A stretch of DNA of 64,000 nt, from contig NC_069133.1 in the NCBI RefSeq assembly GCF_026914265.1, positions 8,067,937 to 8,131,936 on the forward strand, given 5' to 3'. Origin of the DNA: Mya arenaria. Taxonomy: Eukaryota; Mollusca; Bivalvia; Myida; Myidae. Made by a program: the position numbers and the translations under genes. Shown here one piece after another: positions 30,501-37,987 of the stretch (the first letter of the stretch is position 1; each line of letters opens with the position of its first letter). The notes under the pieces were generated by a model. That model did no database searches and was not told the origin of the DNA. It saw nothing but the letters and a program-made list of their open reading frames with translations.

Positions 30501-33500
30501 AGTCCTGCAAATGCAACAGTCATATTGGTTAGACATACAACAATGTAGACTTGCAAATGCATAAGCCATTTTGGTAAGACATTATGCGATGTGCTCTTGC
30601 AATTGCGCCAGCCATGTTGGTTAGACATAATGCAATGGGGTCTTGCAAATGCACCAGGCATATTGGTTATACATAATGCCATGTCGTCTTGTAAATTCAC
30701 CAGCCATGTGGGTAAAACATAATGGAATGTGGTCATACACATGCATCAGTCATGTTAGTTATACATAATAAAGCGGGGTCTTGCAAATGCACCAGTCATG
30801 TTGGTTAGACATATTGCCATAACTGTGGTCCTGTAAATGCACCAGCCGTACTGGTTAGACATAATGGACATCTCATTAATATTTTCTTCCCTTTTTATGT
30901 ACTGACATTTTTCAAAGGTCTATGTCACATTCCGGGGGCATTCGTCAAATACTGTGACAGCTTTTGTTTTCGAGTGTTAATACTGAATGATTGCGAGCAA
31001 ATTCCATGAACTGGGCAATATTGAAATAAACTATGAATTATAACCCCTTTGGTGTTGTACAATCAATAAGAAAGCGTGTTTTTACTATACATGACCAGCC
31101 GAATGTAAATATTACAATATATTTATACACCATATTATATAATTGTTCTTTCTGCAGTGATTTTATGGAGGGTCTACATGTAAATACCATATATCACATG
31201 TATTGAATGTCTCAGAACTCACGACTATGTATTACATTTCCTCGTTGTAGCTCACCCAGTTTGTGTGTGCTGAGAGAAAGAACTTCAACGTTTACCCATC
31301 TGAGGAAAATGTGTTTTCATGGACACGGGCCTGCAGTTTTGAACAGGTGGGAATTTCCTTTTGTTGGTCCTGCTGGATAATAAGACACATATCATAATCG
31401 ATTTGAAATGCACAACCATAATCAATTATCAAATGCGAAATAATCAAAAGTGTATTTCTGTACTCAATATTTGTATCAAACTAACATTTATGCTTATTCA
31501 AGAAACTTCCATTGCTTTTATATTGTAACATATTGAACAGCAGAGGAAGAAAGAAATACTATTTTTCAAATACAGTAATTTCAACAATTTGAAATGATGT
31601 TACGACTTTAAAATGGATATTGTACACGTTCATATTTTTAAGTAAACAAATAAAGTGCTTGGCTATATCTTTTCTGTCACTTTACAGCTAAAAATAATAA
31701 TGACTATCGAAAGAAGGAAAAACATGTAGATTGCAACTAACAATTTGACAATTCAAAATATCTTATTCAGTCTTTATTGTTGATAATTATGGGTGCATGG
31801 GTTAAGATGTGTTGCAAGAACTTTTATTTCATTTTTTCTTAAGGCTTTACTAATGGACAACCTGTATCACCCGTCTTGAGACTGTACATGTGTAGTTAGC
31901 TTCGTGGTATGAACTAAGTGTTTCTTGTAACACTTCCCCCCACCCCAATATGTTTGGGAAATGCCCTATACAATGGAATTGAGAATCTCCACATACTTTT
32001 CACAAAAAATGAGTTATTTCTTTGTAATTATGTAGGTTGAATATATAGAGGGTAATAGTTTGTTTCAGTTTAAGATCTTAAAGATGCACTCTTACATCCA
32101 AATAAGATTTACAACAATAAATAAAATTGTTTGAATATACCAAAAAGAATGATTAAATGTCGAAAACAATGGTTTTTATGAAGGAAATCGGGTTTAATTT
32201 GAAAGAAAGGTGCAGAAAACAGGGTATTTCTATCCTATGAGAAGATAGTAGATCACAGTAAATATTTTATCACTAACCAATCATTTAATATTTTTGCGTT
32301 TTCAAAAGTGTATGTTTGTTATACATGCGTATGTATGTTTTTCGAACACTAGTGTCACTTATATATCGTTGAATGAGCACCAAAAGCTATATTTATGAGT
32401 ACCGTATAGCCCTGTCCAAGCCTTTTTGGCAGTGATGTTTTATTCGGGTGTGAGATTGGTCTTAAATTCCTTAAGAGTGAGAAATATCTTTGAAACATTA
32501 AAATTGCAAATAAATAATGCAAGAACATCAATATATACCACCGGAAAACATAATATAAACTCAAAAACTCCTTTTAACCATTTATTTGAGGACATGTATA
32601 ACCTGAACAGCAACTACAGTTTTTTTCAAAAAGAACTGAAATTTATTATAAACACACACACACACACATATATATATATATATATATATATATATATATA
32701 TATATATATATATATATATATATATATATATATATATATATATATATATAAATTAATTATAAACACACACACACAAGGTGGTTATACTGGGGCAGGATCC
32801 CTATCCTGGACCGAAAGAGGCACATGGTATGATAGTTACGTATCTTACAGTACTCCTATGTAATGTAGCTTAAACCGTTTCAAATTTAAATATTAAAGAT
32901 AATTATGAGCTGATATTAATCGTGCATGAGGCTGTATCCATTTTGACAGTCCACACGAAAGTGTCCCGAATTGGGGATTAATTTGTGACCTTTTGGGTAA
33001 AGTTTTGATACAAAGACCACCTTGTGTGCAATTGTGTAGGCATAGATCATGCTTATCGTAGTAATAAATGAACATAATTGCAGAATAAATTTTAAATAAG
33101 TCATAGCGTTTAAATATAAATATAGCGAATGGCTGCTTAGTACTATATTAGCAGTATAGTTTAACTGCACATGTTCAGTAAGTGAAAACAGTCATCCCGT
33201 TATGTTACGTGGGAAAATGAACATACATTTCAGGCCTGGCATTCAGTGTTCCGACGAATGTGACTCCTCCCCCTCCCCCGAGGTATGTTCATGTTGAGAA
33301 GCACATACATTTCTTTTAACTATTTTATATTGAAACCGATGTTTCATGCATGGAAATACAGAGACAATTTGTATTTTGGCTGCCAAAACATACCACATAA
33401 TGTATTTCTCCCTATACCATGGTGGGCCCTGTCTCGCAACACGTTGCCTCCCTGACATACCCTGCAGTGCCTTGTTAACACCATTCTGCTTCATGTCCTA

Positions 33501-36500: not shown

Positions 36501-37987
36501 TTCGCCAGCTATTTATGCTTTCAAGCTTTAAAACATGGATGTTGTAAACACTAATATTAATAATATGGATGATTTGTTACTTGTGCAGGTGTGTTGATGC
36601 TGAATTCGGTGTTGACAGTGCGAGAGGGTGTCGAAGCATCTCACACAGGCAAGGGCTGGGAGCAGTTCACAGACGCCGTAATCGCGTACCTTAACAACAA
36701 CAAGAACGGGCTTGTCTTTGTCATGTGGGGGCTGTATGCTCAGAAGAAGGCTGCTCGTATTGATAAGGTAGGAAGAAGGAGAAATAATTAAGAGTATTGA
36801 GCTCTGGTTCCTCAACAAGTGACGTTGAAATAGTAATTAGAAGGATGCTATAACCAACAATCATCTTAAAATACAATTAACTGTTTTTATGCTTGGATAC
36901 AGTTAAGGCGTATTATGTGCTTTAAGTTGTGCACAATTATTTCATACTGTCTTTTGCAATTAATTGCATTCATCTCAGTAGTTTTAGACATAGAAAGGCA
37001 GAAGTTATTCAGATTGGCATGTTATACAAAACAATGATTGTAGGCATGTTATGCTCATCTTGTTTGTCTGAGAAAACAAATGCTGAGGAATTGAAATAGC
37101 CTTATCGTAGATGTTGTTGTAGAGAAAAGGCTAGACACCAGATGATACAATTGCAAGAAAAAAAAGAAAATTGTCAAAGACTTACATAAAACTGACATCG
37201 TTTGTGAGCAACGCATTGAATCTTACTTACTGATGTATCACATGACTTGCAACATGTGTATTTTTCGCATTTTATACGCATTTTACCAATTCGAAATTCA
37301 CTCAGGCTGTCTACCACGTACATCCAAGTAAGTTTAAAAATAGAGTCGGTTTATTTATCTGTACTCATAAACAGATATGATTTAAAACATAATGCATTTT
37401 AAAAAAAACCCGGAGAAACACAGAGACAGCAACATGATTGTTGCGTTTATCATTTTATTCATGTAAAGTGATGTATTATCTGCCTTCTTCTAACTCGCAT
37501 TGACACTTATATGCCGTTTTTGAGGAAATACTGTATTTGACGATTTTGACGATTTTGAGACCATATGGTGTCTAGCCCATTTAACCTTAGCCAGAACTCA
37601 AAACCATTTATTACATTAAAATAAAACTTGGTACACAAGTTGCCACAGTGAATATGCACACGTACACCAAGCTTTAAAATGTGTTCAGTTGTCCACTTGT
37701 TCGACTGGAAAATACCAGACCAGCGTTATTGTTTTCTTAGACGTCCTCTTGTTGAAAATGCTTGTTTGCTTTTATTGGATTTTATGTACTGTATATTTTA
37801 GGTAGTGAGTCACCGTATCCTGACGAGCTCCCTTCCCTCCCCGAACTCTGCCCATTTGGGATTTTCCGGGTGTCGGCATTTTTCTCAGATTAATGCTTAT
37901 CTGCAGAAGAATGGGATAGACCCGATAAACTGGTCATACCTGCCCCCTTTTCAACCTCGTCTGGTAGATCACAAAATTTTGGTGTAA
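27553..37987 (+). CDS. Uracil-DNA glycosylase (family 1, UNG-like) with altered active-site motifs
   Basis: Seven exons join in phase: 27,553-27,651; 31,251-31,346; 32,778-32,826; 33,234-33,282; 36,018-36,106; 36,589-36,767; 37,802-37,987 (stop included). From the ATG at 27,556 this gives 247 residues, about the size of the UNG catalytic domain; an upstream exon may add more. Family enzymes remove uracil from DNA in base excision repair. The fold signature is clear: [17 protein letters not shown] (65-73), [40 protein letters not shown]. Kept are Asp71, Tyr73, Phe84 and Asn132, matching human D145, Y147, F158 and N204. Changed are Pro74 for H148, Leu197 for catalytic H268, and Asn201 for the intercalating L272. 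Splice sites and frame are otherwise sound. Either a catalytically altered paralogue or an early pseudogene. Confidence 0.88.
28735..28925 (-). mobile_element. tRNA-derived SINE in UNG intron 1
   Basis: On the minus strand the head (28,925 leftward) reads like a tRNA: GTCCGGTTAGCGCAGTTG (A-box) and, about 30 bases on, GGGTTCGATTCCC (B-box). A non-tRNA body follows, containing GGTTTCCTCCACATC. The strand is opposite to UNG. Typical of mollusc tRNA-headed SINEs; family not named. Confidence 0.7.
28957..29720. repeat. Tandem block of a bivalve-type dispersed repeat in UNG intron 1
   Basis: Begins ATGCCCCCGAAGGTGGGCAT with (CCGT)n, then repeats about every 180 bp the pattern 'ACGATGTGTCGCGT', 'CAAGACC', 'GTGTTT', 'ATAAGGACA'. 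About four degenerate units. Confidence 0.8.
29735..30875. repeat. 46-bp minisatellite in UNG intron 1
   Basis: Units of about 46 bp built on CTTGCAAATGCACCAGCC then ATGTTGGTTAGACATAATG, roughly two dozen copies. Minus-strand frames across it are repeat artefacts. Confidence 0.95.
32088..32360 (+). mobile_element. MITE family copy 3 in UNG intron 2
   Basis: Starts TTAAAGATGCACTCTTA and contains ACCAATCATTTAATATTTTT. The part before the right terminus is deleted, and the right TTAA is lost (ends GTGTCACTTATA). Confidence 0.85.
32658..32777. repeat. (AC)n-(AT)n-(AC)n microsatellite abutting a UNG exon
   Basis: A short AC run, about 40 AT units, AATTAATTATA, then AC units up to AAG at 32,777, directly before the exon with the GQDPY motif. 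The 3' splice site therefore lacks a normal pyrimidine tract. Confidence 0.9.
33440..36017. repeat. 41-bp minisatellite filling UNG intron 4
   Basis: About sixty units of roughly 41 bp, such as GTTCGGTATCATGTCTTCCC followed by CTGCTGTGACTCATTAACAT. It fills nearly the whole 2.7-kb intron, and its last unit contains the splice acceptor at 36,017 (CCCTGCAG where most units read CCCTGCTG). Open frames inside are artefacts. Confidence 0.95.

What the first reader, a model, noticed from the sequence alone, without database searches (positions are those of the whole stretch)
32778..37987. UNG-family gene whose catalytic His and DNA-intercalating Leu are replaced
Seen: the motif at 32,778-32,826 reads GQDPYP, and the last exon reads LPSPNS where family 1 uracil-DNA glycosylases have GQDPYH and HPSPLS. 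Known: human H268 is a catalytic residue, L272 wedges into the minor groove, and H148 lies in the active site. All three positions are changed, while the positions of D145, Y147, F158 and N204 are kept and all seven exons join in frame. A random pseudogene would be expected to show stops and broken splice sites first. This suggests a paralogue retained for another role (uracil or other-base binding without cleavage, altered base specificity, or a competitor of UNG), or a very early pseudogene.
Basis: partly seen in the sequence, partly recalled or inferred. Interest (0 to 1): 0.8.

Follow-up and report, generated by a model that had tools for sequence, protein, structure and literature searches.

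The report
Disabled UNG copy in clam cluster
This clam gene is a shortened copy of the DNA-repair enzyme that removes uracil from DNA, one of four side-by-side copies of which one looks normal and two are clearly broken; it still reads as a whole protein but has lost key catalytic parts, so it is most likely a spare copy that is dying.

Summary
Seven exons (27,553-37,987, longer than the stated range) join in frame into a 248-aa family-1 UNG core with GQDPYP and LPSPNS. Human D145, Y147, F158 and N204 are kept; H148, Q152, S247, H268, L272, R276 and F279 are changed. The window lies in a 1.216-Gb, 18-contig genome whose size fits Mya arenaria. There the gene is copy D of a tandem array: A is canonical, B has a frameshift, C a damaged exon 2 and a stop codon. 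B, C and D share a 5' end unlike A's and changes at R276 and F279, so the DNA-insertion loop was probably altered before D split off. Evidence for selection on D is mixed. Branch dN/dS is 0.48 (D=1 rejected, p=0.020), but p rises to 0.07 on subsets of exons, and beside the nearest introns codon positions 1+2 run at 0.9 of the intron rate. No stop or frameshift is present where about five would be expected. Against present function: the exon-3 splice acceptor was replaced by a microsatellite, H268 is lost, and two of the three sister copies are dead. Best reading: a decaying duplicate, frame still intact. A retained pseudoenzyme is not excluded; expression data and orthologues were not available.

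The parts
27553..27651 (+). Exon 1 of copy D: possible start ATG at 27556 (MASKLPN...), then [13 protein letters not shown]; acceptor ttttcag
   Evidence: 5' end shared with B and C but not with A
27200..27341 (+). Interspersed repeat upstream of exon 1, in the 5' segment that B, C and D share
   Evidence: 40 of 43 matches are short matches within about query 13-168, 38 of them on other contigs
31251..31346 (+). Exon 2 ([10 protein letters not shown]...SFEQ)
32650..32777 (+). (CA)n(TA)n(CA)n microsatellite up to AAG: the ancestral exon-3 acceptor (ttttag|ACG in B and C) and two codons are gone
   Evidence: the only non-YAG acceptor of 23; its matrix score depends on the training set
32778..32826 (+). 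Exon 3 with GQDPYP (H148P); the catalytic Asp is kept
33234..33282 (+). Exon 4 ([15 protein letters not shown]), 6 nt longer than in A, B and C
33453..35981 (+). Tandem-repeat array within intron 4, shared with A, B and C
   Evidence: ladder of self-alignments; output partly cut
36018..36106 (+). Exon 5 ([14 protein letters not shown])
36589..36767 (+). Exon 6 with GVLMLN (N204 kept) and WGLYAQKK (S247L)
37802..37987 (+). Exon 7 with [14 protein letters not shown] (H268L, L272N, R276L, F279S), stop codon at 37985-37987

Best explanation
The gene is the last member (D) of a four-copy tandem array of family-1 UNG on one clam chromosome. A copy without the N-terminal exon part, with a new 5' end, gave rise to B, C and D; R276 and F279 (and perhaps L272) in its DNA-insertion loop were changed early (inferred from changes that B, C and D share). 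D then lost H268 and H148 and had its exon-3 splice acceptor overwritten by a microsatellite (shown), while B and C picked up a frameshift and a stop (shown). D is most likely a decaying duplicate whose frame has survived, either because it was protein-coding until recently or partly by chance: the uracil pocket is still encoded, the base-flipping loop and catalytic His are gone, and correctly spliced mRNA is probably scarce (inferred). Uracil repair would rest on copy A and perhaps on a further canonical copy on C1 (inferred).
For: Array A/B/C/D and the lesions of B and C. Shared residues and shared 5' end of B, C and D. Exon-3 acceptor AAG without a pyrimidine tract; skipping exon 3 gives a stop after 10 codons. 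In exons 5-7 positions 1+2 of D change at 0.058 per site against 0.064 in the neighbouring introns, as expected without constraint. The BC stem is 1.10 and B=C=1 is not rejected, p=0.14.
Against: No stop or frameshift exists in D although about 2.2 stops and about 2.7 frameshifting indels (scaled by branch length) would be expected. Branch dN/dS of D is 0.48, D=1 rejected at p=0.020, and equal to that of A (A=D not rejected, p=0.75). The acceptor argument is weak: with a matrix trained on other exons only, D exon 3 (-5.3) scores like exon 6 of A (-5.7), and an in-frame AG lies 18 nt inside the exon.
Confidence: 0.62

Rival explanations
1. D is a retained pseudoenzyme: a translated UNG core without efficient cleavage that is still under selection, for example as a binder of uracil or abasic DNA, a scaffold, or a competitor of copy A.
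For: Intact frame; branch dN/dS 0.48 (p=0.020; 0.44-0.50 on exon subsets with p about 0.07); net exon length changes in frame; uracil-pocket residues kept. At a separate locus C1b is an open UNG copy with GQDPYD and HPTERR at dN/dS 0.39 and dS 0.71 against its neighbour. Vaccinia D4 shows that a UNG fold can have a catalysis-independent role (PMC1936997, PMC4450493; passages).
Against: Positions 1+2 run at 0.9 (exons 5-7) and 0.8 (exons 3-4) of the rate of the nearest introns. Exon-3 acceptor replaced, N-terminal exon part absent, two sister copies dead. No expression evidence.
Confidence: 0.23
2. D is still a glycosylase with an altered loop, as in poxviruses, slower or with another preference.
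For: D145, Y147, F158, N204 kept. Vaccinia UDG works with GIDPYP and Arg in place of Leu.
Against: H268, invariant in 81 of 81 references and kept in vaccinia UDG, is Leu in D.
Confidence: 0.1
3. Assembly or polishing error: the true allele carries the canonical codons.
For: Reads cannot be seen here; if the assembly is the published one it was made from PacBio long reads polished with 10x reads (PMC10663159, passage).
Against: L272N and R276L each need two base changes from the codons of A; changes at R276 and F279 recur in B and C, and H148P in B; exon length changes in D keep the frame.
Confidence: 0.05

Closest known systems
Family-1 uracil-DNA glycosylase (UNG), human and bacterial
   Same: Homologous over residues 14-233 of 248, best PDB E 3.1e-81; Q144, D145, Y147, F158, N204 kept
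   Different: H148P, Q152E, S247L, H268L, L272N, R276L, F279S; two residues missing before VVILG; no N-terminal part like that of copy A
Vaccinia virus UDG (D4)
   Same: GIDPYP water-activating loop and no Leu in the insertion loop (PMC1936997, PMC4450493; passages)
   Different: D4 keeps the catalytic His (H181) and works in the viral polymerase complex; D has lost that His and is a spliced animal gene
Duplicated (unprocessed) pseudogenes
   Same: Tandem copy with introns, 5' part replaced, damaged acceptor, broken sister copies
   Different: Reading frame still intact

Membership tests
Family-1 UNG, active enzyme | Sequence homology over the catalytic domain | tested here: met
Family-1 UNG, active enzyme | Water-activating motif GQDPYH | tested here: not met
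   GQDPYP; H in 80 of 81 references. Not decisive alone: vaccinia UDG has GIDPYP
Family-1 UNG, active enzyme | HPSPLS loop with catalytic His268 and Leu272 | tested here: not met
   LPSPNS
Family-1 UNG, active enzyme | Uracil pocket D145, Y147, F158, N204 | tested here: met
Family-1 UNG, active enzyme | Uracil excision activity | not testable with these tools
   Needs protein
Duplicated pseudogene | Stops or frameshifts in the coding sequence | tested here: not met
   None in D; a frameshift in B and a stop in C
Duplicated pseudogene | Neutral evolution | tested here: inconclusive
   dN/dS 0.48, p=0.020, p about 0.07 on subsets; 0.9 of the neighbouring intron rate in exons 5-7
Duplicated pseudogene | Damaged splice site or lost 5' end | tested here: inconclusive
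   Exon-3 acceptor replaced, the one non-YAG of 23, but its score depends on the training set; the upstream part of A's exon 1 is absent from the aligned region of B, C and D
Pseudoenzyme under selection | Intact frame with catalytic residues lost | tested here: met
Pseudoenzyme under selection | Purifying selection | tested here: inconclusive
   as above
Pseudoenzyme under selection | Expression and conservation in other species | not testable with these tools
   No bivalve genomes other than the window's own, and no RNA-seq, were on hand

The most novel reading that the evidence does not exclude
This clam carries a clade of UNG-derived proteins whose DNA-insertion loop was altered in their common ancestor and which stayed protein-coding afterwards; D is the intact survivor, a UNG-fold pseudoenzyme that keeps the uracil pocket without catalytic His or Leu wedge. 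With C1b on another chromosome (GQDPYD, HPTERR, open over the exons joined, dN/dS 0.39), loss of the base-flipping loop with retention of the fold would have happened at least twice in one animal genome.
Probability: 0.2. Interest if true: 0.65.

Novelty: new member of a known kind. Interest (0 to 1): 0.38.

Why it matters
UNG is usually described as a single, highly conserved gene in animals (recalled). A four-copy array with one canonical gene, two wrecks and one intact but motif-altered copy is a natural series for asking in which order a repair enzyme loses its parts, and whether a UNG fold without catalysis can be kept in an animal as it is in poxviruses. If the species is Mya arenaria, a clam with a transmissible cancer (PMC10663159, listing and passages), the state of its uracil repair may also be of practical interest.

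Tried and rejected
Processed pseudogene: rejected, because introns are present and shared with A, B and C. Intron comparison: the first version pooled all introns and made D's positions 1+2 look slow (0.6 of the intron rate); matched to the nearest introns the ratio is 0.9 in exons 5-7 and 0.8 in exons 3-4, so that argument for constraint was dropped and the odds of the decay reading raised (0.55 to 0.62), those of the pseudoenzyme (0.30 to 0.23) and of the novel reading (0.25 to 0.20) lowered. Conserved-column test for constraint: not discriminating, because B against C shows the same bias (7 of 73 against 40 of 147). Splice-acceptor matrix: the first version, whose training set included homologous acceptors, made D exon 3 a strong outlier (-7.9, next +6.6); trained on other exons only, it scored like exon 6 of A, though below the median random AG of D intron 1 (-5.3 against -2.7). 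Intron indel counts depend on gap costs: the first scoring gave 58 B-D indels, a stricter one 24; the stricter is used. Nucleotide alignment of exons gave spurious short gaps, so net exon lengths are used. Papers: judged by the listings, no paper on UNG duplication in a bivalve or mollusc appeared (1 paper) or (3 papers), and none of the 10 shown of 56 holds the term uracil-DNA glycosylase. The C7 ORFs at first looked like His-less UNGs; alignment showed that 3 of the 4 distinct ones have an HHP(S/T)F stretch, so they are not counted as support (the notebook entry predates this).
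Full report
What is there. Seven exons between 27,553 and 37,987 join in frame into 747 nt and 248 aa ending at a stop codon. Pfam UDG gives 51.3 bits (cut-off 24.3), and the 43 distinct PDB sequences matched at E up to 0.001 are named as uracil-DNA glycosylases or, for two, 'glycosylase'. In human numbering D145, Y147, F158 and N204 are kept, and H148P, Q152E, S247L, H268L, L272N, R276L and F279S are changed. In 80 bacterial UNGs plus human UNG, H268 is invariant (81 of 81) and H148 nearly so (80 of 81); Q is at 152 in 79, Leu at 272 in 61, Arg at 276 in 57, Phe at 279 in 66 and Ser at 247 in 29 of 81. 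The 80 bacterial sequences are the best 80 of 585 confirmed loci of a capped list, picked by short stretches of this protein ([48 protein letters not shown]), so conservation inside those stretches is partly by construction; the GQDPYH and HPSPLS columns lie outside them.

Where it is. The window is C12:8,067,937-8,131,936 of a genome of 1,216,080,610 bases in 18 contigs. A published Mya arenaria assembly has 1.22 Gb in 17 scaffolds (PMC10663159, passages). The species is therefore an inference. The Pfam profile search of the own genome found no match, not surprising for a gene cut into short exons; a protein search found 33 matches on C12, C1 and C7.

The array. On C12, all on the + strand, lie A (C12:7,974,075-7,984,546 for the exons modelled), B (8,005,460-8,013,197), C (8,058,857-8,066,212) and D, the window copy. 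A has GQDPYH, WGSYAQKK and HPSPLSAHRGFFGC and an intact frame in the part modelled. B has a one-base deletion in exon 6 that shifts the frame, GQDPYPEP and HPSTQS. C has lost the start of exon 2, has WG changed to SG, a stop in exon 7, GQDPYH and HPSTQS. So P at position 148 occurs in B and D but not in C. Of 73 columns conserved at 95% or more in the 81 references, A departs at 5 (two of them shared with human UNG), B at 10, C at 10 and D at 7.

History. B, C and D share a 5' end that is not that of A. A's first modelled exon extends upstream into a basic, Pro-rich stretch with SPLSPEQKQRMAENREKALAKL, which resembles the RPA-binding region of UNG2 (resemblance recalled, not tested). B, C and D instead have ttttcag followed by an in-frame ATG, and a flank that includes an interspersed repeat (43 matches, 3 of them the array copies over the full query, 40 short). 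B, C and D also share F279S, a changed R276 (Leu in B and D, Lys in C), KT to QI and D to N in IDW, where A and human UNG agree with each other. Codons at 272 (CTC in A, CAA in B and C, AAC in D) fit one shared loss only slightly better than two. The pooled introns give the tree with B and C as sisters and D nearest to them. The array is a mosaic, though: in intron 3 D is nearer to A (0.75) than to B or C (0.70-0.71), while in introns 5 and 6 D is nearer to B and C (0.79-0.92) than to A (0.67-0.80). Gene conversion is likely and the branch tests below assume one tree.

Selection. Pairwise NG86 dN and dS are 0.194 and 0.406 for A-D, 0.180 and 0.267 for B-D, 0.123 and 0.092 for B-C. Without exons 3-4 D is 0.50 (p=0.066), and for exons 5-7 alone 0.44 (p=0.071). 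Beside introns the picture differs. Pooled, the D branch is 0.106 in introns and 0.055, 0.073, 0.141 at codon positions 1, 2, 3. Matched by region, exons 5-7 have 0.058 at positions 1+2 and 0.112 at position 3 against 0.064 in introns 5-6; exons 3-4 have 0.166 and 0.309 against 0.206 in introns 3-4. So the low dN/dS rests on a high synonymous rate rather than a low replacement rate. The intron yardstick is itself shaky, since on the BC stem positions 1+2 of exons 5-7 run at 0.074 against 0.029 in introns. I call the evidence for constraint mixed.

Frame. With region-matched rates about 2.2 stop codons would be expected on D's branch, 10% of simulations having none (2.9 and 5% with the pooled rate). 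Frameshifting indels expected on D plus the BC stem are 3.9 to 5.3 per 720 bp, so about 2.7 to 3.3 for D alone (my scaling by branch length). Neither kind is seen in D. B and C too have fewer lesions than such rates predict, so the three may have stayed coding for a time. Net length changes in D's exons (27 nt shorter than B and C in exon 1; exon 3 6 nt shorter than in A and C, exon 4 6 nt longer, exon 7 one codon longer at its start) keep the frame.

Signs of decay in D. In B and C exon 3 begins ttttag|ACG; in D that acceptor and two codons are gone and (TA)n(CA)n runs up to AAG|GTGG. D exon 3 has the only one of 23 acceptors without YAG. The matrix score is not firm: it is a clear outlier with all acceptors as training, but equals exon 6 of A when only other exons are used. 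Skipping exon 3 would give a stop after 10 codons. An AG 18 nt inside exon 3 would keep the frame but remove VVILGQ (the effect is inference).

How it most likely works. The residues that recognise uracil are kept; the water-activating loop, the Gly-Ser loop and the Leu loop are altered. Human UNG inserts L272 into the space left by the flipped base (PMC5156901, passage). Vaccinia UDG has GIDPYP and Arg in place of Leu, is active, and its polymerase role does not need glycosylase activity (PMC1936997 and PMC4450493, passages), but it keeps the catalytic His. D has lost that too, so I expect little or no cleavage (inference). Taken with the acceptor and the dead sisters I judge decay more likely (0.62) than present use as a pseudoenzyme (0.23).

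Other UNG-like genes in this genome. C1 holds two copies about 17 kb apart: C1a with GQDPYH and HPSPLS (four exons joined), and C1b with GQDPYD and HPTERR (three exons joined; a first exon is visible but was not joined); both are open over these. NG86 gives dN 0.278 and dS 0.712 over 165 codons. C1b shows that a motif-altered UNG can stay open for long in this genome, and it is the main reason I do not put the novel reading lower. C7 holds five single-frame UDG-like ORFs, two identical in the part searched; the four distinct ones have pairwise NG86 ratios of 0.56 to 1.18.

What is missing. No RNA-seq, no polymorphism data and no other bivalve genome could be reached, and only one assembly was seen.

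Noticed in passing
G000 C1:19,467,823-19,469,250 (in L121) and 19,486,362-19,490,032 (in L123, L124): Two further UNG genes on the minus strand; one has GQDPYH/HPSPLS, the other GQDPYD/HPTERR yet an open frame over the exons joined, NG86 dN/dS 0.39 at dS 0.71. A better candidate for a retained motif-altered UNG than the window copy.
   Followed up: partly
G000 C7:32,397,933-32,671,558 (L134-L138): Five single-frame ORFs with weak UDG similarity (26.4 bits, cut-off 24.3, for the one tested) and G[QH]DPIPY; three of four distinct ones have an HHP(S/T)F stretch.
   Followed up: partly
window 32,826-42,062 against array copies A and B: Intron 3 of D is nearer to A, introns 5-6 and three pieces of the 3' flank (87-96% to B, window 37,956-42,062) nearer to B, which suggests gene conversion within the array.
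   Followed up: partly
window 58,136-60,924: Three ORFs with NADAR-domain matches (68.7, 39.2 and 19.8 bits, cut-off 35.1), so a NADAR gene probably lies downstream.
   Followed up: no
window 43,940-44,368: ORF with a RING zinc finger (40.7 bits, cut-off 25.2).
   Followed up: no
window 3,611-3,952 and 44,653-44,994, minus strand: Two nearly identical 113-aa ORFs 41 kb apart, probably copies of one interspersed repeat.
   Followed up: no
C12 copy A exon 6 (C12:7,983,645-7,983,823): Copy A has GWEKLTD where B, C and D have GWEQFTD; Phe there is in 81 of 81 references, but these were picked partly by KGWEQFTD.
   Followed up: no
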